This document shows positions 20,425 to 56,453 of a stretch of 64,000 bases of DNA, in pieces (the stretch's first letter is position 1; each line of letters opens with the position of its first letter). Origin of the DNA: Anastatus disparis (taxonomy: Eukaryota > Arthropoda > Insecta > Hymenoptera > Eupelmidae); assembly GCA_017163975.1 (NCBI GenBank), contig JAFFSR010000369.1, positions 4,046,001-4,110,000 on the forward strand. The letters are read 5' to 3'. The notes beneath the pieces were generated by a model, which ran no database searches, had not been told where the DNA came from, and saw only the letters and a list, made by a program, of their open reading frames with translations. A program made the translations under genes and the position numbers.

Positions 20425-21014
20425 CCCTAATAAAAATTTAATTTGTTCATAACTATTAAAAATTATTTTAATCAATTCACAACTGTTTAAAAATGATGAA
20501 AATCCTTCAAAATAATCGAAAAGTGTAAATTTTCGGGTCTCTAAAACAGTTATAAATAGTCTTGAACGGTTTTAAAAAGCTTTGAACCGTTTTAAACTGT
20601 TTTAAAATTTTTTAAACTTTTGATTTGTTAATTATTTGGTTTTTGAAAATTTAATCAGTTGAAAATTGTTTTAAATTGTTTTAAACTGTTCAAAATAGTT
20701 CGAAACTGTTTAAAACTATTTAAAACTGTTCAAAACTGTAAAAAATTGTTGAAACTATTTAAAACCGTTTAAAACGTTTATATCTGTGTAAAATTATTCC
20801 AAAAAATAATTCACCATGCTTAGTAAACTTTAAATAAAAAAGCTAAGAAGTGTTTAAAACTGTTCGAAATTGTTCATAACTGTTTAGAATTGATCAAAAC
20901 TCTTTAAAACTGTTTGAAATTGTTTGGAATGTCTGAAAATTTATCCTATTAGACAGTTTTACGCAGTTTTGAACAATTTTAAACAGTTTTAAACAAATTA
21001 TATTTTTATCAGGG
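20425..21014. mobile_element. 590 bp MITE built of degenerate ~10 bp units
   Basis: The ends CCCTAATAAAAATTTAATTTG and its partner CCCTGATAAAAATATAATTTG (reverse complement of the right end) form the TIR. The interior is a long run of variants of tgtttaaaac in both orientations. No coding capacity; target duplication not defined. Confidence 0.65.
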
Positions 21015-21041: not shown

Positions 21042-21829
21042 TTATGAACATGACGAAACTGCTCCTCCTCTGATAATATTTCCAATCCTAGTTTAAGAGT
21101 AAACGGTGCGATTAATCGAATTTTTTTGCTATAGTAAAAAAATTTGTAAAATTAAACTTGAGTGCAGACAATTCAAGAAATCCACCAAAATACTATACAT
21201 AAGTTATATACAAACTTTCAGTTTATCGTATTTTGAGGTTAGGTTTGTTGAGCTTGATATCTCATTTCCAATCCAAGTATATAAAAAAAATACAAGTCCA
21301 AATGATTTTTTATTTTAACAAAAATTATTGTTTTAAGGACATATAAAACGGATACTACACCTGTACTCTTAATTTTGACTATCTTTTAATTTTATTGCAA
21401 TATTTTAAGAAAAAAAATGCATTAGCTTGTACTATGTACCGTGAAGATCATTCAGCTGAATTTTCAAATGAATTCATTCATTAATTTTTTAGAATTTCAG
21501 ATTTCTTTTACAAATTCTAAAAATGTTAAACTTTAATTTTGGAACCCAAAATTCTAAAAAATTAATGAATGAATTTATTTCAAAATTTAACAAAATAATC
21601 TTCATAGTAAATACTACCAGCAGAAGCATTAATTTTCCTCAAATTTTGCAATAGAATGAAAATATAGACCAAATTCATGAGTACGGGTGTAGTGTCTGTT
21701 TCATATCCTTTTAATATAGCTTTAGTGCGGACAAGTCATTATATTTGTTTAAATTATTATGAATTAAAAAACATATCAATAAAATAAAAAAAAGCAAAGT
21801 CGATTCCAGCTGCTCCGTCATCCCGTTAA
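21042..21829. mobile_element. TTAA element, family F4, split by an F5 MITE
   Basis: The left end is degenerate (ttatgaacatgacgaaactg) and the right end is tgctccgtcatcccgTTAA. An F5 MITE (21333-21714) sits at the TTAA that in the other F4 copies reads attgtattaatatagc, giving a direct empty-site proof of TTAA duplication. Confidence 0.8.
21333..21714. mobile_element. TTAA fold-back MITE, family F5
   Basis: It starts TTAAGGACATATAAAACGGA and ends TCATATCCTTTTAA. Both arms carry ctacacctgtactc or its complement and pair toward the centre. A second copy, enlarged by insertions, is 57112-58642. The host F4 element gives the empty site. Confidence 0.85.
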
Positions 21830-23650: not shown

Positions 23651-23790
23651 AGTTATAATAAAAGACTATCGCATAAATTTTTATATACAACATTAAAAAC
23701 TACATTGAAATATTTCATCGAAATATTATTGCAAGGTTGCAATAACCTTACGTAAACGCAGCTAAAAGGTTTCATGAAACATTACAATGT

Positions 23791-24859
23791 CTTAAATAAC
23801 TAATAAACAGATATGCAAATTAATTACTTGATTTAAACTCAATTCTTTATGCACAATTATTTTCTAGCAAGAAATAATTTTTTCATTCAAGAAAAATCAA
23901 ATAATGTAGAAATACTGAAGCAAACCAATAAATTAATTATTTTTCTACAAGAAAATCAGATAAAACTATTTTTTTTGTATCAAAAACATTAGATTTGTTT
24001 TGTAGAAAAATAAAATTATTAATAATTAAGTTAATCAATTAAATATTTTTTTATACAAAATTATTTAATGGCAGGAAAAAAATAATTTTTTTAATTTAAG
24101 AAAAATAATTCTATTGAGCTTCATTTATTCTTCATAATTAATAGTTACTTATATTTAATTAATAATTTGTTTGATTTAAATTTACAAATTATCTACTCTG
24201 TATATATAATCCAGTGAAAATTTCACCATTTGATTCAGTGGATATGATTTCACTGAAAAATCAGTAAAAAATTTACTGAAATTTCAGTTCCTCCTTTATT
24301 CTACTGAAATATTATTAAAAATTCAACTTGACTTCCATTTTCTCTTTTATTCCACTGATAATTCAGTAAAAATTTCACTGATTGAAAAAGTAAGGATCAA
24401 AATTCATAAGGGTGGCAGTGCATGTGTTATGGAAACGATATGTGAAATACAGATGTCGCTCAGCATGGCCGTATGTTGGATTGTCGGTCTGTGTTGACCG
24501 GGATTATGGGTGGCCGCACTCCACCTTTAGCGTGATCGAGGATGAGAATACAAAAGGTATCTACTACCTGAATGAGAACAACGAAAAATTATTAGTAAAG
24601 ATGTTTTATTGAATCGCCAAACTCTCGGCTCTCGTGTATATAGCCAGCTTGAGGCACGACACACGACTGACTATTGCGGCTTTGCCGCCTTCCTTGCTTG
24701 CTTTACAGGTCTCTCCTTCTCTCTCTCTCCTGACTGCGCTTGCGCGTTAGCGCGTACATATGTAGCCTGCCTACATGACTCCCCCCTAAATGACGTCTAC
24801 ATTTTTAAATCATATTTTTACGAAAAAGATTTTAATTATTATTTATTGGTTTGCATGAA
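23791..24859. repeat. Left arm of a long-distance inverted repeat
   Basis: This 1.07 kb matches 55209-56338 in reverse complement. It begins tcttaaataactaataaac and ends ggtttgcatga. It consists of a repeat family containing cagtgaaa/actgaaatttcagt motifs, broken by the LTR-like module at 24448. Part of the same repeat family without that module lies at 48826-49090. Confidence 0.8.
24448..24859 (-). mobile_element. LTR-like module at the 3' side of the Gypsy/kinase block
   Basis: Read on the - strand: a polypurine-like tract TTTAGGGGGGAG (about 24779-24790), then a possible LTR from TGTAGGCAGGC (24775) to CTCATTCA (24569). Inside are TATATA (near 24640) and CAATAAAAC (near 24608). About 120 bases of leader-like sequence follow and end at 24448 beside the target motif GATATGTGAAA (24437-24447). 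Its orientation and place suit the 3' end of the retroelement block 25188-33030, but no matching 5' LTR was found in the window. The same module lies at 55187-55619. The chance frame at 24609-24899 is not a gene. Confidence 0.55.
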
Positions 24860-25187
24860 GTTTACAAAATACGTTTTTCAAAAATATAATCTTTTTTAAC
24901 AAACTGTTTTGACTCTGATATTTGATATCCGACTCCATAGAATATTATTCTTTTGAACGATTACAATAGTTATTTTTTACATATTTTTACATGGATAAAG
25001 TCTTTTCTTTTTTATTTACATTGCGTTACCTTAGCTTTTTATTATTTTAAATCACATTTTGTTTTTAATATACATGAGTTTTTTTAGCTGCTATTTTCCA
25101 GCTTACAAATTGCATGTGATTACTTAAACTGCTATTTTCCAGTCTTTTGATTTACATTATACTGTTGTTTTACAGTCTTTTCTATAG

Positions 25188-26969
25188 TTAATCATTTACA
25201 TTAAATTTGAATGTGTATGTATTATCTTTCTCTACACTTGTAATTCTGCTGTTGTCAAACCTTTTAATCATTGATGAGTTTAAACTTATATTACACTTTA
25301 CAAAATGAGCGTACAGTTTTTTGGTCCATTTGACAATAGATTCAATGAATTGAACTTTTAGAAATTTGGTTTTTTTCTTGCCAAGAGTGTTGATTACTAA
25401 GATCTCTTCAATTGGCAGAAGTTTGATTGATTCAAGGGTTTGACTTACAGCTGAATAGTAGCTTATTTTTATAATTTTGAGTGATTTAAGCATTGATAAT
25501 ACTAATGCGTAATCTATCTTAATGCCTAGCAAATTTAATTTAACTACATTTTTTACATTATTGATTATATTAGGAACTATTTTTTCCATGCTGCCGTTAT
25601 TTGACAGGTCTAATTTAATTACATTTGGATTATCATTGAAACCAGGTAAGTAATCGAACTCTACCATGGTGTCTTTTGGCACTGAGTAGTTAAAAGTTAT
25701 GTTTCTAAGTTGATTTTTGCTTGACAAAAAGGCTTCGATTAGTCTAAAAAAATGTAGATGTGGATCGATGGTTTTACAATCTGTAACTACAATAGTCGTT
25801 ATTGTCTGATTATACCAGATAAAATCAAATAGGCATGAGCTAAGGATTTTATAACAATTATTTATTGTTAGCGATTTTAAATTAGTGCAAGCATCTGGTA
25901 GTAAAAATTTTAGTCTAGTTTCTTGGCTGTTTTCTAACGTTAAATTATGTACATTGTTATATTTAAAATTTTTATCAAAACATTCAGTAAAGTTACCCAA
26001 GCACAGTGTATGTGACTCAAACAACTCATCCACTAACGATAGAAGTTGCAAGGTTGCGTTTATACCTCTTAAATCTATCATATCTATGACTATTTTGCCT
26101 GCGCAATTTGCTTTGGTATCGAATGTGTTATACTGCACTTAGAAAAAATCTATTACTGTGGAGACTTTAATAGGGACTGAATGTCCTTGAAACTTAATTT
26201 TAGTAAATTTAAAGTTACCTGCATCTTCTTGAATGATTTTAAGGTAATTTGCCGAGTTATACCGATTAATCGATGAATCGAATGTTGTTGTAAAGGAAAA
26301 GAACGCTGGGTGAAAACGTGTGGTTTTAAAGAAATTAAAGAAGTCGTTTGTGTTTAATCTTTCGACAATTAACTCTAAGGCAATGTTACTGTTTAACAAT
26401 TAAGCTACTGTTAAAGGCATCACACGATAATCAGCTTTTCTGTAAGTTAGTGGTTTATGGTTGTGCATATGGCACGATTCGTCAGGTTTGCACCTGAGAA
26501 AGCTACTTTCTCCTTTATCGTATTTAAATTCAAATTTATTACAGCATATGTCACCTTGAAGTCTGGCTGATATTGGCAGGTCTTCGCAGCTGACTACAAC
26601 GAAAGATCGGTTGTTTTTATGAAAAATTTTGTCTATTTTGACTTTATTGATAAAACGAGAGATTAACATCGCGTAGATTTCTTCTTTGGTCACGCCTTTA
26701 AATATATTATATAAAAATAGTTTCTGCACGAGGCGTTTATTTACGAACAGTTACAGAATACGGTGATTAATCACTATAGTCTCGTTTAAATACACGCGAC
26801 GTTGATGAAGGTTTAATTTCCGCTCTCACCTGTCGGCTAACTTTTGGAAGTGGTCCCTAAAGTGATTAAGGTAGACATCGGCCATAAAACAGTTCGCTTT
26901 AATAGCTTGGTCTGTTTGTTGCTTTTTGAATGTTTCCAATTCTTGAAAGACTTGGTCTAATTATTCCAT
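25188..26969 (-). pseudogene. RRM-like/F-box-like/LRR protein, one frame with five internal stops
   Basis: One frame of 594 codons runs from ATG 26969 to TAA 25188 with no frameshift but five internal stops (26961, 26826, 26751, 26400, 26139). Residues 4-45 look like a coiled coil (LDQVFQELETFKKQQ). Residues 84-140 resemble an RRM (LFLYNIF, then helix, then SFVVVSCEDL). Residues 150-175 are Cys/His-rich (CKPDESCHMHNH). Residues 194-225 resemble an F-box (IALELIVERLNTNDF). The remainder has irregular leucine-rich repeats (NLKSLTINNC, VIKLDLSNNG, VVKLNLLGIKI). Domain names are inferred from pattern. A pyrimidine-rich tract ending in AG lies just upstream (about 26980-26995), a possible splice acceptor. 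It follows the kinase gene in the same orientation and precedes the LTR-like module. An F-box/LRR protein would recruit targets to ubiquitin ligase; this is untested here. Confidence 0.6.
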
Positions 26970-27087
26970 GTTGCGAGATCTGTAGGGGAAAAGGATGTCT
27001 AATTAGTTGATCGTTCATTTTCAACACGTAAAAATTCTCGTTAACTAGTTAGTAACTTAGATTTATATTAGTAGTTGTTAAATTTGT

Positions 27088-28095
27088 TTATTTATCTAAA
27101 TTGGGATAGAGATCTTTAAATGGGAAGTGCCCTAAGTTACACATTCCGGCGAATAAAATTGTTTGGATTTTGCTATTATTAGGAGATTCATGGTGCTCAT
27201 ATTGAGATATTTCATCGAAATACGTATCAATTAATTGAGGGTGATTTTTGCCATTGAAACAGCTTTCTATGAATCCTGAAATGTCTGCAAAAGCTAAGTT
27301 TTTGAGCTTAAAAACAGCTTCTTGGTCATCGAGTCCTTTGTACCAAGTTAATTTGCCACCTGCCCATATGATCATGTTGTATCCCAAGGATTCAAAATCT
27401 CCTCTTCTTGTGGGGACTCCTTGATGGGCATCACGACTTAAGAATTCAAGTGTGCTATTGTTAGCTTTTTTAGGGTCAGGTTTGAAGACCATACTGGTTT
27501 TAAATTTACAAGACAGACCAAAATCTGCTAGGTATACCATATTTCTGTTGTTTTTATCTATGAGAATGTTGGTATTTTTTATATCATTGTGGACGTAACC
27601 TTTTTTATGCATATACTGCAGAGCTATTGAAATTACCCACGTTAAGTGGTAGACTATATATTCAGGAAACACTTTATCTGTTTTCAAGAGCAGTTGCTCT
27701 AGGTTGAGGTCGTATCTTTTTAGAACTACAAATCTGTAGTCTTCCTTATTTATTTTATAGCTTCCTACGCCAAGATACTGGGGTAATCCTATTCCTGGGA
27801 TTGATTCGTCCTCTGCCCATTTTGTTATCATTTTTGGAAGGGCTGTCTGCATGTAAAAGTGCATCTCGACAAACAGAGGTCCATTTTCATGTTCTATTTT
27901 TATTACTGCTGCGTAATCTTTTGGGATTTTGCCTGTATATTGGGTAGCAGCGTAAATTTCGCCAAATCCACCAACGCCAATTGATGGTCCAATAATTCAT
28001 CTTTTTTGTTTAAGATCCGTAAAAATCTCATTCAAAGAGATTGGTTTGGGCATAGCACACCTTTTTTCAGCTAACTCTTTTAGAGGAATCTCCAT
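27088..28095 (-). pseudogene. VRK/CK1-group protein kinase, one internal TGA
   Basis: From ATG 28095 to TAA 27088 one frame of 336 codons is broken only by a TGA at 27997-27999. Motifs in order: glycine loop IGVGGFGEIYAA, catalytic lysine in AAVIKIE, helix-C region GPLFVEMHFY, catalytic loop YVHNDIKNTNIL, metal loop LADFGLS, and RRGDFESLGYNMIIW in the C-lobe. The last motif with the GPLF.E block is characteristic of vaccinia-related kinases (eukaryotic VRKs and their poxvirus relatives), which phosphorylate serine/threonine, often on nuclear proteins. The catalytic residues are retained; only the stop breaks the gene. It starts 92 bases after the integrase stop codon, in the same orientation. 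Its presence directly behind pol suggests capture by the retroelement; chance insertion of the element beside a host gene is the alternative. Confidence 0.8.
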
Positions 28096-28186
28096 TACTT
28101 GGTTTTGCTGACTGAATTTAATTTTCTTTTTGTTTACATACTGTTTAAGAGGAGCTCGCACGTTGCTCTTAACGGGCGCTAGTGCA

Positions 28187-29430
28187 TTACTCTCTTGTAT
28201 ATTTTTGGGTTTTTGTGATTTTACTGAGGCCTGAGACCTTGTGTTTTCTTATAGGTGGGTTTAAGTCTATGTCAGGCATGACAGTATCCTGATCACAGCT
28301 TTCTGATCTCGACTCAGCATGTTGGCTTTCGTCAATCACCTGAGGTGGTTCAGTGGTACGTCTAATAAGATCGTAATTATAACTATTGCCATACGTATTA
28401 CAATTTTGTTCGTATATATCTTCTGGTCCTAGGACTAATTCTACAAGGTCATCTGGGACGTAGTGAGCTGGTTTAATTAACTCAACCGCTACTGTTTTCT
28501 GATTGCCATTAATGTCTATGACGAAATTACGTCCATTATTGTTACGCGAAATAACCTTGTGAGGTCCAGTGTATGGTTTATCAAGACCAGTTTTAGGAGC
28601 TTTATTACGGTAAAATACATGGGTGCATGACGCGAGTTCCTTGTAAACAAAAGGTTTAATCGCGTGTTTATGCGCAACCGGTACAGGTTGTATTTTACGA
28701 ATGTACTCTCGGAATTCTTCCAAGAATATTTGTCTGTTTGGCTCAAATTCTCCGAACGCGAAGAATTCGCCAGGTAATCTTAGAGATGTACCAAATACAA
28801 AATCTGCGGGACTTGCTTCAGTATCCATACGCAAACTAGTGCGAAGACCTAGCATAACTGAGGATAGGACGCGTGACCAATCATAATCGTCAGTGTTACA
28901 TTTTATGGCAGCTTTAAGGACTTTATGCCACCTTTCTATCATTCCATTTGCCTGGGGGTGGTAAGCTGTTGTTCTAATGCGCTGACAGCCAATGAGTTCT
29001 AGTAATGCTCTGAACAGCTGAGATTCAAACTGTGAGCCTTGATCTGTCGTTAGGACTGCTGGAGATCCGTAACGAGATATCCATATGTCAAAAAATGCAC
29101 GAGCTACTACGGGCGCAGTGATTTCTGACAATGGAATGGCTTCTGGCCAGCATGAGTACCGATCTATCATGGTCAATATATATCGATTGCCTTTGCTTTC
29201 AGGTAGTGGTCCTACTATGTCCATATGTACATGTGAAAAATCTGTTATCTGGAACTACGAAACGTTCCGGCAAGAGTTTGTTATGCCTGGTTACTTTAGA
29301 GGTTTGACACCTGATGCATTCTTTGCACCAAGTTCGAATATCTTTCGATATGTTAGACCATACGTATTCCTGCCTTATAAGTTTGTCTGTGACATTAGCA
29401 CTGGGGCGTGAACAAGAGTGATAAATGTCA
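28187..29430 (-). pseudogene. Gypsy integrase with broken N-terminal zinc finger
   Basis: The main frame (28187-29224, 345 residues) carries the integrase core of a Ty3/Gypsy element. DIVGPLPES begins the core with the first Asp, LTTDQGSQFES holds the second, and AYHPQANGMIERWHK the Glu; a C-terminal tail follows. Upstream (about 29225-29430) the zinc finger part, including CKECIRCQTSK, is in another frame, so the gene is frameshifted. Integrase inserts the cDNA into the host genome. It lies downstream of RT/RNase H and directly before the kinase gene. Confidence 0.85.
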
Positions 29431-29594
29431 AATATTTCTCTTCGAAGAGATACAGGTACATACGGTCTTATTACATTTTTGTGAATGTCACAATATAAAA
29501 GGTACTCCTCTCTACGCCATATAAGCCTTTGTAGCTTATGTGGGTGATCAGGATCTTCTAAGATCTCTGTGAGTTGCTCGTCACTCGCTTGTTC

Positions 29595-30290
29595 TTAACT
29601 AAGTTGTTCTGGAGTGAACAACATGGGAACTTGTATTGCGTCTATTGAGTGTGTTATGTCTTCGTACTTTGCATGGAGTATAGTTTCTGAATTATCCCAG
29701 TCTATCTCTGAAGCACTGCAGAAGGAGTCTATTCTCGATAAGGCGTCTGCTACGACGTTATTATCGCCAGGGATGTACTGGATTTGAGCGTTAAACTCTG
29801 AAATGTATGATATTTGGCGTATTTGCCTTTTACTTGCTTTTTCAGTACTTTGAGATAGTGCAAAAGTCAAAGGTTTATGGTCTGTTACTATAGTGAATTC
29901 ACGCATATCAAGATAGTAATGGAAGTATTTAAGCGCTTCATAAACAGCAAAAAGTTCGCGATCGTATAACGAATAATTTAACTGAGCAGGTGAGAATTTA
30001 CGTGAAAAGAATGCTAAGGGTCGCCAATTATCATTTTCTTTCTGTCCTAAAACTGCTCCCATTGAGATCTCTGAGGCGTCTGTGGCTAACCGTGTCTCTG
30101 CTGAAGGGTCAGGGAAGGCTAAATATGTGGTCTCAGCTAACTCCTTCTTTGCCTGCTCAAACGCCGTTTCTGAAGCATGATCCCAAACTATGGGTGTTTT
30201 ATCTTTTCTTTTAGCATTTCTTATATGCTGATTAAGTGCTGCGTGTGTTTTAGCTGCATTAGGAATGCAGCATCTGTAGAAATTCACCAT
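29595..30290 (-). pseudogene. Gypsy RNase H and connection domain
   Basis: 231 residues with the connection motif MVNFYRCCIPNAA, FEQAKKELAE, LATDASEISMGAVLGQ (first Asp of RNase H), YDRELFAVYEAL (Glu), FTIVTDHKPLTFAL (Asp) and NVVADALSR near the end. RNase H removes the RNA strand during reverse transcription. It is out of frame with the RT part (30386) and with the integrase part (29224), so pol carries at least two frameshifts. Confidence 0.85.
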
Positions 30291-30385
30291 TCCAAGGAAT
30301 CTTCTCAGATCATCGATAGTCTGAGGTTTGGGGTAATTGACAATAGCTTCAACCTTTACTTTTGCAGGCTTAAAGCCTTCTGAGC

Positions 30386-31510
30386 TTATTCATAACTCAG
30401 AAAGGTGAGCTTCGGTACACCAAAGGTGCATTTGTCTATATTTAGAAGTAGATGATACTCTTTGAGTCTCTCTAAAACTGTTTTGAGATGCTCCTCATGC
30501 TCCTTTTCATTATTGGAAACGATAAGGATGTCATCTATATAGAAAAAAACGAAATCAAGGTCGCTAAGAGCCTTGTTTACATATCTTTGAAAAGTTTGCG
30601 CAGCGTTACGCAAGCCGAAAGTCATAACCACGAATTCGAATAATCCGAAAGGTGTTATTACTGCGGTTTTAGGAATATCGTCCTTATCCACGGGTATTTG
30701 ATGGTATGCCCTTTGAAGGTCAAGACTAGTAAAGATGGTTTTACCGTGGAGTAGAATAGGAAAGTCCTGAATATGCGGTACTGGGTACCTATCTGGTATT
30801 GTTACAGAATTAAGTTGACGATAATCGCCACAGATACACCAAGTTTTGTCTTTCTTGGGTACCATATGGATTGGGCTTGCTCAAGGGCTACTGGAAGGTC
30901 TGCATATACCTAATTCACAGAGATCCTTGAACTCTTTCTTTGCAGCAGCTAGCTTTTCTGGGCCTAACCTGCGAACGCGTTGTGCTATAGGGGGTCCGTT
31001 AGTTTTAATACAGTGAGCAGCACCTTGCTCTAGGATGGATGTAGGATTATCTGCGCCAATTACTTCCTGAAACTGGGATAGTAATTGAGCATATTTACAG
31101 TCAGGTTTAATGACTGATATTTTAATCTCATTTATTTTATGATAGTGTAGACCGGTAGTGAGGAATGTCTCTCCATCAACTAACCGTCTCTTTTTTAAAT
31201 CAGGTAACAGGTGGTAATGTTCGAGAATGTCACCTCCTAGTATAGGGTAAGGAATATCTGCGACTACAAAGTGCCATTTTATGGTTTTACGAAGATTTAA
31301 ATTTAATTCAATATATTCGGTTCCGTAGGTATTAATGACCGTGTTGTTAGCTGCGTACAGTTTGAACGCGTGTGGTGTTTCTTTACTGTCGCGCGCTCGC
31401 GGTATTACTGACACTTCAGCACCAGTGTCAACTAGGAACATTTTTTGTGATTTACGGTCGAAAACATGGAGACCTACTGATTTTACACCCGGTATACTCG
31501 TCTCCGCGAC
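30386..31510 (-). pseudogene. Gypsy protease and reverse transcriptase, in-frame stop
   Basis: Protease: FLVDTGAEVSVIP holds the DTG aspartate, and the later ILGGDILEHY is the typical second half. Reverse transcriptase follows: [33 protein letters not shown], then [11 protein letters not shown] with the YIDD catalytic pair. A TGA at 30881-30883 interrupts the frame between protease-side and RT-side parts. The frame is lost again after 30386. The order protease, RT, RNase H, integrase is Ty3/Gypsy, not Copia. Confidence 0.85.
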
Positions 31511-31545
31511 TACTGGGTGCTTGGGTTTTCCTTATTCTATTATAA

Positions 31546-33030
31546 TTATATATTACCGCCTCCTTTCCAACCACAAGGGTCTTCACAAGTCCTTGCTTTC
31601 TCTTTAAACCAATAATGGTAATAACAGAGCAAATGTGGTTTGTCAGATGAAGGAGAGCGAAATGGAGATCTCTTTCGGTTACTATTTTGATTACGCGTAC
31701 GCGATCGACTTCTGTTATTTTGTCGTTGATTATTTATGTTATTCTGTTTTGGTGTAAAGTTCCGTTTTAACTCGTCTATACTATTTTTGATTGAATTGAG
31801 GTCGGCTTCTTTACGTTCTACTTGATTAGTTTGACTGGGGTTTGTATCGACCGCGTAAACGTGCTTAGAGTGTCTATTCATTAATTCGTATATGTGATCT
31901 GCGACACTGACTAGCCGATCCTGATTCTGTTCGTTGATTGGCTCTGGCATGGCCTTTTGCGTGTCTAGTGGTAGTTCTTCTTTCCAACGTACCAAGACTG
32001 CTTTTAACGGAATGTCTTTACCCGCAAGTTCAATTAATTCATTAAGGTAGTCTGACGGTTTATTATTACCTAATTTGCATCCACCGAATAGTTTAGCCGT
32101 TCTAACTTCATACGAGATTTTATATTTATCTAGAACTCTTTGTTTAAGAGTTTGGTATTTATTACCGTCGGGTAGGTTTTGAAGTACGTGTGTGACTTCC
32201 TGCATGATGTTTGAACCGAGATTATTAAATAAGTTAATGTACTTAATATTATCTTGCGTAATTCCGTATATATTTAGCTGTTCTTCAAACGACGTGAACC
32301 ACGATTCCGGTCTGCTAGTCCAAAATGGAATAAATTTAAATTCTTGTATTTGATTATGATATTGCTTAAAGGGAGTAGCTGGAGCACGAAAATTAAAATT
32401 TTGGTTAAATGTTTCATTTACGGTTTGTTTAGGCTGAATGGATGTTTGATTTTGTGCGTTTTGAAAATTACCACGTTTCTGGTTTATTACGTAGTTACCG
32501 TCGTCTCCTGGTATTTCTAGTTTCTTATTGTGCAAGTGCGCATTACTACCGGCAAAGTTTAAGAGTGGCGCGTTTCTGGGTGGTTTATCATGGAAAGTAT
32601 TTGGCGCGTTATTGTTGTTAATTTGATTACTTAATCGGCCTAATTGCAGCGCGTACTCGTTCTTGTGTGCGTTTGCGTCCGGCACTTTATAATTATTCGT
32701 GTTTGGGTTTGCTAAGTTACGATCTCTTGTATCCTGCGCGAGTTCTCTTGTTAAATGTGTTTGCACCAGGTTTGTTAGGTTTTCCACCGCGCTTTCTAAT
32801 CTTTGGACTCTTTTGGTTTGATCTAAATCGTCATGTTTCGCGTCAAGAATCGAAGGAGATGTTTTACCCGAGGAGGTTGGCTGGAAGTTATTGTCTTTTT
32901 TATCATTGTTAATCGGGATATTGTTTTGCTTATCGCTGTCTTCATTGTTGTCTCCTGCCATGTTTCTTTCTTTACCACTACGCAGGACCATTGGGGATCT
33001 GCCTGCCAGAGTACTTTTTTTCAAATCCAC
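31546..33030 (-). pseudogene. Gypsy gag, 494 residues
   Basis: The N-terminal half is polar and Asn/Gln-rich. A central block (about residues 230-400: FIPFWTSRPESWF, then INLFNNLGSNI, then VLVRWKEELPL) matches the capsid-like gag seen in arthropod Gypsy elements. The C-terminus has a zinc-knuckle-like LCYYHYWFKEKARTCEDPC. No in-frame ATG opens this frame at the expected place: an upstream ATG at about 33036 is in another frame across a run of seven A, so a 1-base slip is likely. Gag forms the particle that packages element RNA. The protease frame starts after a stop and frame change near 31546. Confidence 0.8.
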
Positions 33031-33039
33031 TCATTTGTA

Positions 33040-34440
33040 TACTGAAGCTTCACAAGCTTAAAAAGCCGAACTTCAATATCGCACGCGGGCACACATCCTT
33101 TTTGTTAAAAATTAACTGAGTGACTTTGCTTTGATTTACCTTATAATTAATTTGCTTTATTTACTGTTGTTTAAACATTCAAATTTAATATAATGAATTC
33201 ACTCTGTTAATTTTTCATACTATTTTGCAGTGTTTACTGAACTCATTGAGCATTACAAAGTTTTTTTTTTTTTTTTTAATTATTTAAATTGAATAGGTTA
33301 AGTACCTTGTAAAATATACTTATGTGTTTTAATTACATTGATTCAGTAAACTCTACACATTTGTCACACACACTATGCTTGGTGATTTTAATTTTCACCT
33401 ATTTGTGCTTATTATGTTCTTTTTACTTAATTGCGCATATCGTTTTGCCTATGTAAGAGTATCCTGTTAGCGATGTAGGTTTGACTAAATTTATTGACTT
33501 TACATTCAAATTACTTGTTTTTATTTTTTTACAACTTAACATTTACACAGACGAGCTGCCTGCCCGGTGTCGGTTACGCTGCTGTGCTTCAGAGTGTCCG
33601 AAGACGCCGTCTTGTTTGCACCCCTAGCACCAAGGCCTTAGCGCCTCAGCTGCCCCAACTGTTGTTAGGAGCATTGGACGCGTGTGTTGCTCTTACATAC
33701 GCTTTCTCTTTTGATTTTTTTACTATTAAGCACTTTTTAAATTTTTATTTTATTTTTACTTAATTTCTACTGTAATTCACCAGATTCTGTTTTATTTTCT
33801 TTTCTAAATGAATTTCATCTTTCGCAAAATAGAAAATTAAAATGTATGCTTTGCACTTAATCGCTTCAATTTTTCTTTTTTCTAAATTTTGCTTTTTTTT
33901 CACTGTTCACTGTCAATTAGTTCTTCATAGTTTTTTTCACTCAGGCACTGTTCTTTTTATTCACTTTCACGTTTGTTTACTTTGTTTCTTAGAATTTCCT
34001 TTTTACGTTTTTTTGTGTTTGTACTATTTTTATTTTGCAGATCTTTGTGTTAATTTTCATGTTATTTTTCATTAATTGTTTTTTTTTTAATTTTGAATTT
34101 TATGCACGTTTGCTTTGTGTCAAAAAGAAAGCAGATTTTTGCATTTATATCTTGTTCTTTTTTCCTTTTTTTTTGTTAAATTTGCTAGGTTTTATTTAAA
34201 AATGATTTTACTTTTGTGTTTCTTTTACTTGAATTTACTTTTGCTTGCTTTACTTTATTTGTAGGTTAGTGAAAATAAAAGAATGTCGTTAGATATGTCA
34301 ATGCTTATACAAATTCATATAAAATCTTAACTTTAAAAAATGTTTTGTTTAAACAAATTTTCAAAGTTAAACAGTTAATAAGTAAAAAAGTAAATAATGA
34401 CATTGTTTACTTTTTTTAAATAAAATATATATCATTAATT
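33040..34440. other. Region upstream of gag, no gene seen
   Basis: In the element's orientation this is where leader and 5' LTR should lie. It is T-rich with one GC-richer patch (33550-33700). I compared it by eye with the LTR-like module at 24448-24859 and saw no match. The short frames at 33494-34075 have no recognisable products. Confidence 0.4.
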
Positions 34441-34494: not shown

Positions 34495-34649
34495 TACGTA
34501 ACTTGGGTGTACGAAGGATTCTGAATCCAGGCTTGACTAAAGTACTTGTCGCTTGAGTAACAGTCGATCGAGGGCGCGTGAAGCGTTTAACGAAGTGCTT
34601 TTAGCACTTTAGTCTCACCTTTACTCATCCTTCGTACTCCCAAGTTACG
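34495..34649. mobile_element. 155 bp MITE truncating a LINE ORF2
   Basis: The left end ACGTAACTTGGGTGTACGAAGG pairs with the right end CCTTCGTACTCCCAAGTTACGT. Inside, aaagtgctaaaagcactt forms a small palindrome. It lies at the very end of LINE copy A, so the last residues of that frame come from MITE sequence. Confidence 0.7.
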
Positions 34650-36650
34650 TATATAACTAATATATATATTACATTCATTCAGAAAGAGCTTATCATACAG
34701 AGATCGTTTGAAAGAGAAAGAAGCTTCAGGAGAGAACAACTCCAATGAAGATAGCTCTTTGTTGAAGTATTCAGCTGCCGAAAAGGCAAAAGAATGCTGA
34801 AAAGCCGCAGTACGAATGTTCGGACATATAAATAATCTAGGAGGAAGCCTAGATGAAGAACGCACTGATGCGTCAACATGTTGCCTAGAGGCTAAGTAAG
34901 ATGGATTACCATGAGCAGTCACGTTATAAGCCAAAGAAATTTTCAGATGAAGGCGTCTATTCTGTACAGAAAGCCAACGATAGTCTAAACGAAAGGGCGT
35001 AACCCTACTACGTCTACCTATGTGGCCATGAACAAAACGAATGCAGGCGTTAAAAGCTCTATGCAAGCGTAGATTTAAGGGTTGAGGAAGGTCATCATAG
35101 GCAACTGCAGCATAATCAAAAAGTGGAAAAATCAGGGACTCAACTAATTGTTTCCTCGTTTCTTGAGCTAAAGCATGCTTATAGAACTTCAGTGAACGAA
35201 GAGTAGCGTGCACCTTACGGATGGTAAAAGTAACCTGTTTGTTCCAATTAAGTGTAGAGGAAATCCACAAACCAAGGTTTCTAACTACTAAAGAATAAGG
35301 AACGACTATATCGCTAATCACAATATTAGGAACAGAAATCTCCTTTAAACAAGGAATATACTGATCACTTCCGATAAAAATTACTTGGGTTTACTCTATA
35401 TTGAGAAGGAAACCATTTTCAATTGCCCAATTAACCACAGAAGCAACTTCATGATTAATGAGATTAACCTTCTCTTCTTGCTTATTAAGCAATTTTTTAT
35501 AAGGAACTCTATCAAACGCCGGAGAAATCAAACAGAAGTAACAATGTAATCATACGACGCTCAATAGCAGTTCTACAGTCATCGAGTAACTGCAGTAGTG
35601 CTGTTTGAGTACTGTGACCCTTCCTGAACTTAGCCTGCCATGGATCAAGTAAAGGATTTGACTCAAAGTGCGATGAAAGCTGAGAGTGAACAACTCTCTC
35701 CAAAACTTTAGATACTTTACAGAGCTTAGCAATGGGACGTGTTTGCGATGGACTGTCCATCTTAGCTTGTTTGGCCAGTGGTAAAAGAAAAGCTTTTTTC
35801 CAAGCTGTTGGAAAATAGCCAAAGACAAAAGAGTCATTAATAATTTGAACTAAGCCATCAGTTATTGAGCCATCCACCATCTTCAGCATATCAGCTGAAA
35901 CTTGATCAGGATCAACTGCCTTAGAATTTGCTGAGTGTAAGATGTCAATTAAGTTTAAAGAGTTTGTTGGAACAAAGTCCAAAACAGAAACGTCAGACCT
36001 GAGTGGGGTCAAGAGTACTCGCTCGATATCAGAGTCAGATAACATTGGTCTAGAAGAAGAAACCAAGATATAGTGTTTCAGAAGTACTGAAGAAGAAAAA
36101 TATTTAAGGGGAGAAGGTAAAACGTTATTAACTAGGCCCGATTTCCGAAGTTTTGACCATTTATTTTTGACTGATGATGCTGAGGAAATTTTGCCAGTAA
36201 TTAAATCATTTTTAAATTTATTAAGAGAATTTGAGACTTGATTTCGAAGAGATTTAAATCTAGCGTAATCGACAACCGAGCTGGATCTCTGTGCCAATCG
36301 ATAGTAATTATCACGGTTTTTCATGAGCAAACGTAGGTCATAAGAAACCATGGCTTGCGTTTACTAGAAGTCCTAGTTACTCTTACTGGAGCAAATTTAT
36401 CAAAAACATTAATAATATTCGAAGTGAAGACATCTACGCTACCATCAATGAATTTACCATTTAGAACTTGAGGTAGATGATTAACAGCATTTTGATCAAG
36501 ACTAGTAGGACAAGAAGAAGAATCTGTAGAAGAACATAACGAGCTCGCAGGGAAACATAAAGAAAAACTATTACTAACAGCAACCTTCAGAGTATTAATA
36601 TTACAACCACTAAGTTTGTGAGATACTAGAGATTTGATTTCTCAAAAGAT
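34587..36650 (-). pseudogene. LINE copy A, ORF2 with internal deletion of the RT active site
   Basis: From about 36650 downward the frame carries the linker, then RT motifs (RPIAKLCKVSKVLERV, FRKGHSTQTALLQLLDDCR, MITLLLLFDFS). It breaks at 35512 and resumes (AFDRVPYKKLLN) only to join directly to the region after the active site (VVNWAIENGFLL, LGLWISSTLNWN, then LFPLFDYAAVAYDDL). The segment that in copy B holds PQGSVLG and FADD is absent. The C-terminal part (34587-35321) is 244 residues. Jockey/CR1-like group without a visible RNase H. It cannot encode an active RT. Confidence 0.8.
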
Positions 36651-39850: not shown

Positions 39851-42538
39851 AATGCTAACATCTCCGCTTTCACTTTCTGGGCAACAGCCAATGGCCTTAC
39901 CATCAATGCAGCTAAAACTGACCTATTTGTTTCGCACACTCTACTTGATCTTTTCATTGTTGGCTCTGCGGATTCAGTGGCTTCATATACCAAAACTGAC
40001 TCGCCCTTCATTGCCGGTCATGATCTGATTGAGTTGTGTTTTAGGTTTCATCGGCTCACCTCCGTTCCTAAACGTTTTTGGTCTCGTAAGCTGGATACCT
40101 TAGATGTAGTTAATTTTAATTCTAGTCGTAAGTCTTCTCTAGTTAATAAGGTTCAAGGGTTCCTTGATGACCTGACTGTCGCTGTTGACGGCATGGTTTT
40201 GCCTCCTCTCGTTGATTTGACTCATATATAGCCCTTAGAGACTCTCTACCACAATGTCATTCTTGACAAGTTGGTAGACAGCTGTACTAAAGTCTTGGTC
40301 GACACTTTCGATGTTCACACTCTTCTGAAACTAACTACAATACGGCCTCGTAGCAAACCTTGGGTTTCTAACGATCTGCGTCTACTTATGCGTCAGCGTG
40401 ATCGTGCATATAGATGGGTGGTCAGATCTGGAAAATCGGCGGACATTGAAAGATACAGAACTTTGAGGAACTCTATCTCAAATAAGCTCGATACAGCTAA
40501 GTTTCTGTACATATCTGATCGCATTGAACGGGCGAATGATTCGAGAGCAAAATGGTCGACTCTTCACAAATTGGGTCTTGCTAACAAGGCGCTTCCCTCT
40601 CCTCTTCAATACTTCTCGGCATCGGCTCTTTTATCTCATTACTCTGACATCTCTCGGTGTGGTCCACCTTTATCTTCATTGAATGTCAAAGATATTCTTA
40701 ATATTCCTTTGTCTGACTCGTTACCGGTCTTTGAGTTTCGAGAAGTGGGCACCGAGACGGTCAGCAGTCTCACTGCTGCGGCAGAGTCTAGGTCTTCTGG
40801 TCCGGATGGTATCACGGTGCCAATGTTAAAGTTGGCCGCTTAATCCTTTGCTGAACCATTGACCCAGTTAGTTAATGCCTCTTTAGGACTCTCAGCCTTT
40901 CCATCTAGTTGGAAGAAGGCCTACCTACTCCCATTGGCTAAGCTAAGGTCCATGGACGATCCGGGCCAAACTAGGCCGATTGCTAGGTTATGTGAGCCAT
41001 CGAAGGTCCTAGAGAGGGTGGTGAATCGTCAGCTTCTCAACCACATCAATGCAAATAACTTGCTTCACGAGCACCAGGCGGGCTTTCGAGCGGGCCACAG
41101 CACGCAGACAGCACTCCTCAATATCTTAGAGGACGCTCGCACGGCCATTGACAGGAGAATGGTAATAGCCCTCCTCTTGTTTTATTTTTCAAAAGCCTTT
41201 GATACGGTTCCTCATAGGCTAATTCTTCGCAAATTACGTTGTCTTAATTGCTCAGATAAGGTAATACTCTGGTTTGCTTCCTACCTTCAGGGCCGTACGC
41301 AGGCAATTGAGGATCCAGCGAATGGCATGGCAGGTGAATGGGCGTTCTTAAACACTGTTGTACCACAGGGTAGCGTGTTGGGCTCTTTGCTCTTTTCTAT
41401 CTCCATTGATGACCTCCCTAGTGTCCTACGTTTTTGCAGACACACGTTGTTTGCTGATAATTTGCAAATTTATCGCTTCTTCTTTCCCAATGATTTCTCT
41501 GATGAGTTGATAAATATCAATGCTGACATCTCCGCTTTGACTCTCTGGGCAACTGCCAATAGCCTTACCATCAATGCAGCTAAAACTTAGGCTATTATCA
41601 TTGGTAGCGAGCAATATGTCTCTCGTCTCTCTCACCAAGATTCCCCCTCTTCTCTGATAGTTAATGGCGAGTGCATATCATTTGCCACTGAGGTCAAGAG
41701 CCTTGGTGTCTGGATAAACCAGACCTTAAATTGGGAGAAACAAGTGTTGTCTATTATTTGTAGGGTCCATGGTTCACTTCATTCGCTGAGATTCTACAAA
41801 CGCTCTCTCTCTCGAGGCCTTAGGCAGAGGCTGGTTGAATCACTCATCTTCCCGATCTTTGACTATACCTGTGTTATCTATGACGACCTCTTTCAGTATC
41901 AGAACCTGAAACTTCATAGGGCCCTTAATGCATGTGTCAGATTCGTTTTCGGTAACATCAAGGCCCAGGAAAGAGTGTCGCCATACAGGCTTGAGCTTGG
42001 TTGGCTGTCGGTCGAGAGAAGAAGAAGCTATTTTCTTCAACCCTTGGCTTTCTCAATAATCTCCTCAGGGTGTCCGTCCTACTTGGCTCGACGCTTTTCG
42101 AGAGCCAACCATGATGTGGTTGTTAGGTCATCATCTTCTAAGCCCCCCAGAGTGCTGATCTGTCCCACTGCTCGCACTAGTGCCCTTCAATAATATTTTA
42201 TTAATCGGGCTACTAATCTACTTAATGAGGCTACTGTAAGCAGTGAAGCACCCGTGGTTTTCGATATGGGCTTAATCCCTCGATTTAAGAAGCACACCTT
42301 CGACCACCTAATGAACGCCGATCTTGGGGACTGGGAGGTATCACGATGACCCCCATCATGGTTTTGCTTTATTATGTTTTTTCTTTTATACTACACATCA
42401 ATTATACTTGTTAATTTTGCTTTTGTTAATTACATTTTTATTTTTATTTATAGTTATTAATACATATGTATATGCTACATTGAGCCATACGCGGTTTAAC
42501 CCTATGGCTAAATAAATATTTATCTATGTCTATGTCTA

Positions 42539-51265: not shown

Positions 51266-53640
51266 ATGTATATAGCCCATGCCAATGTCAATAGAGTTAA
51301 AACTCATTTCAATGAAATTGAATTCCGTTGTAAGTTAAAAAACTATGATGTCTTCGCAGTCACTGAGACTTTTCTTACTGACTTAGATGCTAGCTCTGTC
51401 ATTGGTATCGAGGGATATGAATTTTTTCGTGTGGATAGGCAGGGCAAGATTGGTGGTGGTGTTAAGGCATATGTGCGTAGTTGCTTCAAAACTCACATAG
51501 TTTACCAATCTGATCCTATGTTTGATGATACATCTGAATTTCTTTTGCTAGACATCAATGATGGTGCCAACTCTATCCTAGGCTGTATAGTGTTTGTCAG
51601 ACCCAAGGCTTCAGCTTTGGAGAATTTGTTCAATGCCTTATCTAATTATACATATAATTACAAAAATATTGTCATCGCTGGAGATTTCAACATAAACTTA
51701 CTCCAATCTTCTTTTTCCTCTGAAGCTCTTAGATCTCATTTTGAATCTCTATCTTTATTCTTGGTGCCTTCGGAGGCTACTCATCACGCATTCACCCCAG
51801 ATCATGTCTCTCACACCTGGTTGGACTTGTTTGCAATAAATGATAGTTCAGAATTGAGGGCGTGGAAACGAAAAGGGCTTATAGCCAATGTTATTTAAAT
51901 GGGCTATAAGCCCTTTTCGTTTCCAGGCCCTCAATTACTATCATACGAAAAGTCGGCCTCACCTTTCATTGCAGGACATGATGTTCTAAAAAATGCTGTA
52001 AACTTAAATTTAAATTTTTATCCATGTTTCTCTGCGAGACCTCTGAACTCTCCTTCTTCTATCTCAGTGTTGTCTAATTGTTCTTCTAATTTTAATCCTC
52101 TTTTATCATGGCAATCACCTCGTAACTCTAATGCTCAACAGATTGATGATAAGGTTAACTTATTTTCATCTAGTATTGTTAATGCTTTCGACAAACATGC
52201 CTCAGCAAAAGAAGTGAGAATCTCCAGTAAACATAAACCATGGGTCTCTCAAGACTTACGCATGCTTATGAAAAAACGAGATAATCTCTATCGTGTGGCT
52301 CGTAGAACTGGTTCAGTTGAGGACTATGCTAAGTTCAGGTCCCTCCGAAATCAAGTCTCTAATTCTCTAAACAAGTCAAAGAATGACTTTATTACTGATA
52401 AACTTGCTTCAGCGCTTACAGCTAAAAATAAATGGTCTGAGCTTCGAAAGTTGGGACTTGCTAGCAAGACACTACCATCACCTCTCAAATACTTTGCCTC
52501 AGCTGTGTTACTGAGGCATAACACTTTAATTTCATCCAGTAGCCCAGCCTTAACCGACTCTGATATTGAACACGTGTTGGCGATGCCGCTCAGATCCGAC
52601 ATACTCATTTTTGACTTCACACCAGCCTCATCTACGAATCTGTTAAATATCATACGCTCGGAAAACTCCAAAGCATCTGGACCCTATCAGATTTTAGCTA
52701 AGATGCTAAAAATGATTGACAGTTCTATCTTTGGTACCTTGACCTCAATCATAAATGATTCTTTTCTAGTCGGTCACTGTCCATCAGCCTGGAAAAAGCC
52801 TATCTTTTACCTCTGGCAAAGCAAACAAACATGGACAATCTATTTCAAACCCGTCCTATAGCCATGTTATGTGAAGCGTCTAAGGTTTTAAGAAGAGTTG
52901 TGCATACACAGTTTTTAAATCATCTTGAGTCTAATTTTATATTAGATTGTCATCAGGCCGGTTTTAGAAAGGGTCATAGTACTCAGACGGCCTTATTGCA
53001 TCTATTAGATGATTGCAGAAGGGCGATAGATCGCCGTATGATCACTTTGCTTTTATTATTTGATTTTTCTAAAGCGTTTGACAGAGTTCCATATAATAAA
53101 CTCCTAGTTAAACTTTGTGACATGAACTGTTCAGATATGATAATCAGATGGTTCTCTTCTTATTAGAGTGGTCGTTCCTATGCAGTGGTTGACAATTCAA
53201 ATAATACAACTAACTGGTCTCAAGTAATGGCTGGAGTCCCTCAGGGTAGCGTCTTGGGGCCGCTCTTGTTCCTGGTTTACATAAATGATGTTTCCGAAGC
53301 ACTTTCATCTACCAAGCATATTTTGTTTGCTGATGACCTACAGATATATAAATCTTTTTTACCGGAGAACCTTTCTGATAAGATAGCCGTTGTTAATCAT
53401 GATGTTGCTTCTGTATTCATCCTCTAGGCTTCCACTTAGACTTTTCATATGTCCCAACGTTCGTACTGCTGCACTTCAGAACTCTTTTGCTTTTTCATCG
53501 GCAACTTATTTCAATAAGGATCTTTTTACATTGGAGGGTTTCTCTTCAGAGAACTCCATTTCCTTCAAAAGGCACTTGTATAAAAACCTTTTATCGAATC
53601 AATGTGAATCGTGGCAGCGTGAGTTGAATGCTGTCTGAAA
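51266..53640 (+). pseudogene. LINE copy B, ORF2 (endonuclease + reverse transcriptase)
   Basis: APE-type endonuclease (51266-51840): HANVNRV, TETFLTD, GGGVKAYVR, VIAGDFNINLL, HTWLDLF. A 77 bp palindrome then adds an in-frame TAA (51896-51898). The linker continues to 52861, where the frame changes. RT motifs: TRPIAMLCEASKVLRRV, HQAGFRKGHSTQTALL, LLLFDFSKAFDRVPY, a stop at 53164-53166, VPQGSVLGPLLF and HILFADDLQIY (FADD intact). At about 53412 the frame jumps from NHDVASV to SSRLPLRLFICPN, so roughly 200 codons of the thumb and C-terminal part are deleted. The last block ends at 53638. It makes and uses nicks at the target for reverse transcription in the intact family; this copy is dead. Confidence 0.85.
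51856..51932. mobile_element. 77 bp palindromic insert with AATT duplication
   Basis: GAGGGCGTGGAAACG...TATAGCC pairs with GGGCTATA...CGTTTCCAGGCCCTC over a 14 base loop. AATT flanks both sides (51852-51855, 51933-51936). The insert plus duplication is 81 bases, so the host LINE frame is kept, but a TAA in the loop stops it. Confidence 0.85.
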
Positions 53641-55186: not shown

Positions 55187-55619
55187 ATTTAAAAATTTTC
55201 AATTTCCCTCATGCAAACCAATAAATAATAATTAAAATCTTTTTCGTAAAAATATGATTTAAAAATATAGACGTCATTTAGGGGGGAGTCATGTAGGCAG
55301 GCTACATATGTACGCGCTAACGCGCAAGCGCAGTCAGGAGAGAGAGAGAAGGAGAGACCTGTAAAGCAAGCAAGGAAGGCGGCAAAGCCGCAATAGTCAG
55401 TCGTGTGTCGTGCCTCAAGCTGGCTATATACACGAGAGCCGAGAGTTTGGCGATTCAATAAAACATCTTTACTAATAATTTTTCGTTGTTCTCATTCAGG
55501 TAGCAGATATCTTTTGTATCCTCATCCTCGATCACGCTAAAGGTGGAGTGTGGCCACCCATAATCCCGGTCAACACAGACCGACAATCCAACATACGGCC
55601 ATGCTGAGCGACATCTCTA
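55187..55619 (+). mobile_element. 433 bp LTR-like module with 11 bp target duplication
   Basis: TTTCACATATC lies on both sides (55176-55186, 55620-55630); the related repeat at 48891-48899 is the empty site. Inside: ~90 bases of internal-like sequence, TTTAGGGGGGAG, TGTAGGCAGGC...CTCATTCA with a TATATA and CAATAAAAC, then ~120 bases of leader-like sequence ending cgacatctcta. It is the reverse complement of 24448-24859. An 11 bp duplication is too long for normal LTR integration. Confidence 0.65.
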
Positions 55620-56338
55620 TTTCACATATCGTTTCCATAACACATGTACTACCACCCTTACGAATTTTAGCCCTTGCTTTTTCAATCAGTGAAATTCCTA
55701 CTGAATTATCAGTGGGGTAAAAAGACACTGAATGTTAAGTTGAATTTTTAATAATATTTCAGTGGAATAAAGGAGACATTGAAGATTCAGTAAACTTTTA
55801 CTGATTTTTCAGTAAAAAAAATTGAAAAAATTGAAAAAAAAATTGAAAAAAAAATTTTTTTTTAAATTTAGAAAATTATTCACTGAATCAAATAGTGAAA
55901 TTTTCACTGAAGTATATTTAGAGAGTAAATAATTTGTAGATTTAAATTAAACAAATAAAGAATTAAAAATAAGTAAGTATTAACTATCAAGAATAAATGA
56001 AGCTCAATAAAATTATTTTTCTTAAATTAAAAAAATGATTTTTTTCCTGACATTGAATAATTTTGTATATAAAAATATTCAATTGATTAACTTTTTTATT
56101 AATAATTTTCTTTTTTTACAAAACAAATCTCATGTTTTTGATTAAAAAAAAATAGTTTTATCTGATTTTCTTGTAGAAAAATAATTAATTTATTGGTTTT
56201 CTTCAGTATTTCTATATTATTTGATTTTTCTTGAATGAAAAAATTATTTCTTGCTAGAAAATAATTGTGCATAATGAATTGAGTTTAAATCAATTAATTA
56301 ATTGGCATATTTGTTTATTAGTTATTTAAGACAATATA
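55209..56338. repeat. Right arm of the long-distance inverted repeat
   Basis: Reverse complement of 23791-24859 with scattered changes and small indels (for example the poly-A expansions near 55800-55860). The arms are about 30 kb apart. Confidence 0.8.
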
Positions 56339-56453
56339 AAAAGAAGGTTGCAAATGTCTGCCTTACCTACATTTACTGAATTTTTACTGGAAACCTTGCA
56401 GAAATCTTACATGAAAGGTTTCTTGCAATGTTTCATGAAACTATTTAGAATTG

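What the first reader, a model, noticed from the sequence alone, without database searches (positions are those of the whole stretch)
24448..33050. Gypsy-type element with a VRK-like kinase and an F-box/LRR-like gene behind integrase
All on the - strand and in order: gag, protease/RT, RNase H, integrase, then 92 bases later a vaccinia-related-kinase-like gene (glycine loop, YVHNDIK, ADFGLS, RRGDFESLGY), then a 594-codon gene with RRM-like, F-box-like and leucine-rich parts, then a TTTAGGGGGGAG tract and an LTR-like sequence. The two extra genes sit where env would be in a retrovirus-like element. Kinase and ubiquitin-ligase-adaptor cargo in a Gypsy element is unusual; I know of no described family with this pair. 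Seen: order, orientation, motifs. Inferred: that all parts form one element. Against: no 5' LTR found in the window.
Basis: partly seen in the sequence, partly recalled or inferred. Interest (0 to 1): 0.88.

Follow-up and report, generated by a model that had tools for sequence, protein, structure and literature searches.

The report
Jumping gene carrying a host-derived kinase
A family of retrovirus-like jumping genes in an insect genome carries, fused to the end of its own polymerase-integrase protein, a kinase related to insect VRK1, an enzyme known to switch off a DNA-binding guard protein, which suggests that these elements bring their own tool for handling that guard.

Summary
In other copies LTR pairs with 4-bp target duplications enclose the set; two pairs are 100% identical, so recent. 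Main correction: the kinase is no separate env-position gene. In uninterrupted copies it is the in-frame C-terminal domain of Pol (PR-RT-RH-IN-kinase). It has the VRK1 fold and catalytic residues, is under purifying selection (dN/dS about 0.1) and groups with hymenopteran VRK1. The arrangement recurs in divergent lineages of the genome (kinases 25-39% identical); 12 relatives have ORF3 but no room for a kinase. A Bel/Pao polyprotein from another source also holds a VRK-like kinase. The host has its own VRK1 and BAF genes. Most likely work, inferred only: the kinase phosphorylates BAF to control its grip on element DNA. ORF3 is no Env; its LRR fold is supported, RRM and F-box are not shown.

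The parts
24474..24775 (-). 3' LTR (TGTAGG...CCAACA), 302 bp
   Evidence: positions checked; ends set by comparison with LTR pairs of other copies that have target duplications
24779..24790 (-). polypurine tract TTTAGGGGGGAG next to the 3' LTR
   Evidence: same tract before the 3' LTR in L009, L012, L030, L031
25188..26969 (-). ORF3 remnant (LRR C part; N part of uncertain fold), interrupted
   Evidence: 67% identical over residues 1-590 to the open 592-aa ORF3 of L030, with 1 TGA and 4 TAA; LRR fold of the relative's model
27064..28080 (-). VRK1-like kinase domain, the C-terminal part of Pol in uninterrupted relatives; here broken by a TGA at 27997-27999; the TAA at 27090-27088 may be its natural end
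   Evidence: VRK1 by PDB search E 2.7e-56; 71% to the L030 kinase; motifs
28187..29594 (-). integrase (H2C2 zinc-binding part and rve core), frame broken between the two parts and again before the kinase
   Evidence: PF17921 E 1.1e-13, PF00665 E 7.5e-14
29595..30389 (-). RNase H
   Evidence: PF17917 E 6.1e-32
30386..30880 (-). reverse transcriptase core, frame broken on both sides
   Evidence: 88% to pol of L030 over pol 223-386; RVT_1 in the relative P0001 E 1.4e-35
30881..31531 (-). aspartic protease
   Evidence: PF00077 E 4.2e-5; 88% to pol of L030
31546..33030 (-). gag, 494-codon stop-to-stop frame
   Evidence: DUF7041 E 2.1e-14; 47% to gag of L030

Best explanation
The window holds a decayed copy of a Ty3/Gypsy LTR retrotransposon lineage that took a VRK1 (nucleosomal histone kinase 1) kinase domain of hymenopteran type into the 3' end of pol and also has a third ORF. 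SHOWN from sequence: in uninterrupted copies the kinase is the C-terminal domain of the Pol frame (protease-RT-RNase H-integrase-kinase), without the host gene's gaps and tail; it has VRK fold and catalytic residues, has stayed under purifying selection and has descended with pol. INFERRED: Pol, made by a -1 frameshift at the 25-nt gag/pol overlap, carries the kinase into the particle; protease may free it; there, or on the pre-integration complex, it phosphorylates BAF (barrier-to-autointegration factor), the known VRK1 and poxvirus B1 substrate, so that BAF lets go of the element's cDNA at the right moment on the way to integration. ORF3 probably works as a soluble, basic, LRR-bearing accessory protein, not as an envelope.
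Against: No activity, substrate, transcript or particle was measured. Removing BAF is not plainly good for an integrating element: the passages of PMC4063967 say that BAF on retroviral pre-integration complexes protects the DNA from self-integration in vitro, and list a paper on MoMLV pre-integration complexes and VRKs that I could not read; in PMC12718190 (abstract) active VRK1 carried with DNA cut BAF clusters but lowered reporter intensity by 72%, and an earlier direct fusion did not reduce clustering. VRK1 has other substrates, such as histones (recalled). The kinase evolves about twice as fast as RT or IN (dN 0.08 against 0.04 and 0.03, A-B). L021 has DFS for DFG and L022 a changed glycine loop. 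In 12 of 81 distant integrase matches ORF3 follows with no room for a kinase, and copy C46 lacks it, so not all of the group need it.
Confidence: 0.5

Rival explanations
1. The kinase works on chromatin: fused to integrase, it phosphorylates histones as NHK-1 does, so that the integration complex binds or opens mitotic or meiotic chromatin.
For: Direct fusion behind integrase, where some Gypsy elements carry chromatin-reading domains (recalled); nearest relatives are insect VRK1 / nucleosomal histone kinase 1.
Against: The Bel/Pao polyprotein P0007 carries its VRK-like kinase before RT, away from integrase, so closeness to integrase is not shared. No substrate data.
Confidence: 0.2
2. The kinase regulates the element's own proteins (Gag, integrase or ORF3), timing particle assembly or uncoating.
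For: It lies in the same polyprotein and descends with pol; mosaic copies keep IN and kinase together.
Against: Gag changes fastest (dN/dS 0.236) while the kinase is conserved; VRKs have a known host substrate on incoming DNA.
Confidence: 0.15
3. The kinase is a decoy or sponge: it binds BAF or other VRK1 partners without needing catalysis.
For: Very divergent kinases (25-39% identity) exist in related elements; single catalytic changes occur in L021 and L022.
Against: Key catalytic residues are present in the 9 element rows aligned apart from those changes and purifying selection acts. The distant kinases' motifs were not read.
Confidence: 0.07
4. Chance neighbourhood: an ordinary Gypsy copy beside a VRK retrocopy and an LRR gene, later duplicated together.
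For: The window copy alone, with broken frames and a single LTR, would allow this.
Against: LTR pairs with different 4-bp target duplications and unrelated flanks at C18 and C301 bracket all parts; Pol-kinase is one frame; same order in divergent lineages.
Confidence: 0.01
5. On origin: several captures rather than one. The close group took a hymenopteran VRK1, the distant Gypsy groups and the Bel/Pao element took theirs independently.
For: Distant kinases are about as far from Trichomalopsis VRK1 (31-38%) as from the close group (25-39%); Bel/Pao has the kinase at another place in pol.
Against: Same place between IN and ORF3 in the Gypsy groups; the AU test does not reject one clade of element and Bel/Pao kinases (p 0.153); the distant kinases could not be read, so no tree holds them.
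Confidence: 0.4

Closest known systems
Ty3/Gypsy (Metaviridae) LTR retrotransposons of insects
   Same: LTRs with 4-bp target duplications, gag, PR-RT-RH-IN order, polypurine tract
   Different: VRK1-like kinase as C-terminal Pol domain; LRR-type ORF3 without a membrane segment where env may lie
Errantiviruses / env-bearing Gypsy elements
   Same: a third ORF downstream of pol
   Different: ORF3 has no membrane-spanning stretch (highest 19-residue hydropathy 1.43) and an LRR fold
Poxvirus B1 kinase
   Same: genetic parasite carrying a VRK-family kinase; B1 blocks BAF (PMC4063967, passages)
   Different: retroelement, kinase in Pol, of hymenopteran VRK1 type; substrate untested
Insect VRK1 / nucleosomal histone kinase 1 (ball)
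   Same: close-group kinases 42-55% identical to Trichomalopsis VRK1, motifs shared
   Different: no gaps such as introns make, no C-terminal tail, fused behind integrase
Retroviruses with captured kinases (oncogene carriers, recalled)
   Same: host kinase taken into a retroelement
   Different: here the kinase sits in an otherwise complete Pol, kept and multiplied with it
Bel/Pao polyprotein P0007 (unnamed Logan contig of 8732 bases)
   Same: VRK-like kinase inside a retrotransposon polyprotein, best PDB match VRK1 E 1.2e-68
   Different: other retrotransposon order; kinase lies before RT; its LTRs and further copies were not examined

Membership tests
Ty3/Gypsy LTR retrotransposon | paired LTRs with short target duplication | tested here: met
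   LTR pairs found at 5 of 25 fetched loci, all 5 with a 4-bp duplication: C18 CAAA, C301 GATT, C204 TAAT, C254 TTAC, C46 TACT; none for C382 despite a 5' extension, none in the other 19 stretches, most of which do not hold both ends. In the window itself no 5' LTR remains
Ty3/Gypsy LTR retrotransposon | pol order PR-RT-RH-IN | tested here: met
Ty3/Gypsy LTR retrotransposon | polypurine tract and primer-binding site | tested here: inconclusive
   polypurine tract present; a TGGTGA-type stretch follows the 5' LTR, matching tRNA not identified
Errantivirus (env-bearing Gypsy) | membrane-anchored Env | tested here: not met
   no hydrophobic span, net charge +23 (L030 ORF3); LRR fold
VRK kinase family | VRK-type kinase domain by sequence and fold | tested here: met
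VRK kinase family | BAF kinase activity | not testable with these tools
   needs an enzyme assay
VRK1/NHK-1 | C-terminal regulatory tail | tested here: not met
   element kinase ends shortly after the domain
F-box/LRR protein (FBXL) | LRR domain | tested here: met
F-box/LRR protein (FBXL) | F-box | tested here: inconclusive
   no Pfam match; region of low model confidence
RRM protein | RRM domain | tested here: inconclusive
   strand-helix-strand-strand-helix order at residues 84-142 of the model at low confidence; no Pfam match

The most novel reading that the evidence does not exclude
A diversified lineage of Gypsy retrotransposons carries a BAF-inactivating VRK kinase as a standing domain of Pol, a counter-restriction enzyme like poxvirus B1, and a Bel/Pao element reached the same solution on its own; the host's several BAF-like genes may be the other side of that contest.
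Probability: 0.4. Interest if true: 0.93.

Novelty: new variant of a known kind. Interest (0 to 1): 0.84.

Why it matters
Retroelements are rarely reported to keep a captured host enzyme (recalled). Here one is built into Pol, conserved, present in divergent lineages, and of the kinase family whose known substrate, BAF, is named for its action on retroviral DNA. That makes a direct test possible of whether BAF restrains or serves retrotransposons in insects, and whether elements evolve to control it. Nine full-text searches of the open PMC library, eight of them joining retroelement with kinase, VRK, BAF or LRR terms and one on BAF and B1, listed no paper whose title or abstract start describes a VRK kinase in an LTR retrotransposon; only listings were judged, and subscription papers and preprints were not covered.

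Tried and rejected
Chance neighbourhood of unrelated genes: rejected by LTR pairs and by the single Pol-kinase frame. ORF3 as Env: rejected. ORF3 relatives in public proteins: none at E up to 0.01 among the 7999 candidates scored; none in PDB by profile at E up to 1. Kinase in viral contigs: 9 stretches matched a pattern, none confirmed. P0004-P0006 and P0008, found with the Pol-length query, show no retroelement domain in the Pfam list (P0008 has no Pfam entry at all) and read like host VRKs. One shared clade of element and Bel/Pao kinases was not rejected (AU p 0.153), so independent capture rests on the different element order and place in pol, not on the tree. Rows kept in the trees, of 78 trimmed kinases: 75, 38, 45 (33 dropped before building, long-branch and redundant rows, P0007 among them). 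The host VRK1 search with P0069 did not complete and was dropped.

Tables typed: 113 of the 119 kinase rows (six second fragments of the same copies left out) and all 74 ORF3 rows, all 106 integrase rows, 116 kinase rows (113, three) and 59 ORF3 rows (58 rows as they stood and the two C214 rows run together; 14 rows of close copies left out, none near a listed integrase by my inspection). The lists are capped by the tool (74 of 863, 118 of 328, 84 of 371 and 106 of 9704 candidates scored), so 'not listed' is not 'absent'; only the 786-805-base gaps speak against a kinase.
Full report
What is there. The window is G000:C361:4046001-4110000 of a 939-Mb, 399-contig genome. On its - strand, 33030 to 24474, lie gag, protease, RT, RNase H, integrase, a VRK-like kinase, an LRR-like frame, a polypurine tract and an LTR. 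Most frames are broken: six interruptions lie between the protease frame and the main kinase frame, one of them a TGA at 27997-27999, and ORF3 has 1 TGA and 4 TAA. The LTR probe finds no 5' LTR; the second match, at 55268-55619, is part of an inverted 1.1-kb copy of the 3' end and flank. Upstream of gag, at 34587-36351, are frames that read like a non-LTR reverse transcriptase (my reading).

Is it one element? A DNA search with window 26000-28000 gave 48 matches in the genome. I read 25 stretches of 9.9 kb round such matches, plus the window. Integrase followed by kinase on one strand is seen in 24 of 26, and integrase, kinase, ORF3 in 23 of 26; L012 lacks the kinase, L011 lacks integrase and most of the kinase, L018 lacks ORF3. 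Self-comparison of the 25 loci, with 5' extensions for five of them, found LTR pairs at five places, each with a 4-bp target duplication read by eye from the printed ends: C18 (CAAA, LTRs 100% identical over 300 bases), C301 (GATT, 100%), C204 (TAAT, 98.4%), C254 (TTAC, 94.8%), C46 (TACT, 91%). C18, C301 and C204 enclose gag to ORF3; C254 encloses RH, IN, kinase and ORF3; C46 is the copy without kinase. At C382 the extension gave no pair, and the other 19 stretches, most of them without both ends, gave none. C18 and C301 have flanks that do not match each other, so they are separate insertions, and recent ones.

Anatomy of uninterrupted copies. In L030 (C301) gag is 477 aa, pol is a 1499-aa stop-to-stop frame overlapping gag by 25 nt in the -1 frame, and ORF3 is 592 aa, with 87 bases between the pol stop and its ATG. 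The pol frame runs protease-RT-RNase H-integrase-kinase. It is uninterrupted over 1492-1499 aa in L025, L026, L028 and L030, 4 of 26 loci; whole integrase and kinase share a frame also in L009 (the window's own subfamily), L022 and L024, and the end of integrase and the kinase in L020 and L021.

Selection and descent. Pairwise NG86 dN/dS at dS 0.5-1 has medians: gag 0.236, PR 0.075, RT 0.054, RH 0.064, IN 0.055, kinase 0.105, ORF3 N part 0.107, ORF3 C part 0.123 (only copies with open frames over at least 90% of the domain, which leans towards conserved copies; at dS above 1 the kinase median is 0.150). Between subfamilies A and B mean dS is PR 1.08, RT 0.86, RH 0.74, IN 0.60, kinase 0.77, ORF3 0.66-0.78, gag 1.11: the kinase has descended with pol. 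Between the window's subfamily and A the picture is less even: kinase 1.06 and PR 1.25, but ORF3 2.3-3.2 and gag 2.9, from few pairs and near saturation, which may reflect exchange between elements. L024 and L025 are mosaics, with gag/PR/RT near one subfamily and IN/kinase of another.

A wider group. With the L030 kinase as query the genome gives 119 matches (118 of 328 candidates scored). Of the 113 rows that I tabulated, 34 have 60% identity or more, 77 have 25-39%, and two are host VRK1 exons. Six close and six distant matches have no stop inside and lie in frames that the tool gives as 1488-1499 and 1438-1456 aa; for four close ones this agrees with my own stop-to-stop reading, and for four distant ones the integrase search gives the same frame length (C298, C87, C65, C368). 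Trichomalopsis VRK1 finds the distant ones at 31-38%. Of the 74 ORF3 matches, 40 have a listed kinase directly 5' on the same strand; of the 41 distant ORF3 matches (under 40% identity), 15 do. With the L030 integrase as query, 106 matches were scored of 9704 candidates; 50 have a listed kinase 172-658 bases downstream on the same strand (24 of 25 close, 26 of 81 distant at 58-63% integrase identity), 23 of these with ORF3 listed behind it. Fifteen distant integrases have ORF3 but no listed kinase; in 12 of them the gap from integrase to ORF3 is 786-805 bases, too short for a linker and a kinase of about 900. Forty distant ones show neither in these capped lists. So the kinase is an optional module between integrase and ORF3, present in several divergent lineages. 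Some close copies (C342, C243, C346, C211, second copies on C350 and C371) have the kinase but no listed ORF3.

Outside this genome. Searching 5.8 billion proteins for Pol-length proteins with this kinase gave 11 hits among 1359 candidates; one, P0007 (1594 aa, 7 member sequences), is a Bel/Pao polyprotein with kinase (169-427), RVT_1, A17 peptidase, H2C2, rve and DUF5641, its kinase closest to VRK1 (E 1.2e-68). The other ten look like host kinases or weaker kinase matches. ORF3 has no relative there at E up to 0.01.

How it most likely works. VRK1 and vaccinia B1 phosphorylate BAF at its N-terminus and stop it from binding DNA; BAF binds foreign DNA in the cytoplasm and also sits on retroviral pre-integration complexes, where it protects against self-integration in vitro (PMC4063967, passages seen). 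The host genome has six BAF-family matches at three gene-like places (the tool's 14 control genomes had none). A kinase that travels in Pol would reach BAF on the element's own cDNA. That the kinase is active, that BAF is its substrate, and that this helps the element are inferences. Against a simple benefit: VRK1 carried with DNA reduced BAF clusters but lowered reporter intensity (PMC12718190, abstract), and BAF protects retroviral DNA. Timed release rather than plain removal therefore fits best.

Verdict. A real element, correctly noticed, with an important correction: the kinase is part of Pol. A new variant of Ty3/Gypsy element; the mechanism is open but directly testable.

Noticed in passing
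window 55209-56339 against 23782-24858: The 3' end of the element plus flank is present again in inverted orientation, 88.8% identical over 1132 bp.
   Followed up: partly
window 34587-36351 (-), 40271-42193 (+), 51266-53166 (+): Open-frame pieces that read like non-LTR reverse transcriptases and an endonuclease (my reading, no family search made).
   Followed up: no
window 20450-20935 and 21371-21675: Tandem units of about 10 bp and a 127-bp inverted repeat.
   Followed up: no
P0007 (unnamed Logan contig, 8732 bases): Bel/Pao polyprotein with a VRK-like kinase before RT: a kinase in another retrotransposon order.
   Followed up: partly
G000:C287:3993530, C43:1327328, C88:348902 and nine others: Gypsy relatives with ORF3 786-805 bases after integrase, with no room for a kinase.
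   Followed up: partly
G000:C342:7187942, C243:1516586, C211:4409799, C346:182634: Close Pol-kinase copies (frames to 1488 aa) with no ORF3 in the capped list: perhaps a different third ORF.
   Followed up: no
L024, L025: Mosaic elements: gag/PR/RT near one subfamily, IN/kinase of another, as template switching between co-packaged RNAs would make.
   Followed up: partly
G000:C227:2260168-2260520, C224:2805651-2810496: Six BAF-family matches at three gene-like places, two of them neighbours on C224; more than the one BAF gene I recall for most invertebrates.
   Followed up: no
G000:C44:255604-257349: A distant ORF3 match lies in a frame given as 1477 aa, so ORF3 may be fused to something there.
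   Followed up: no
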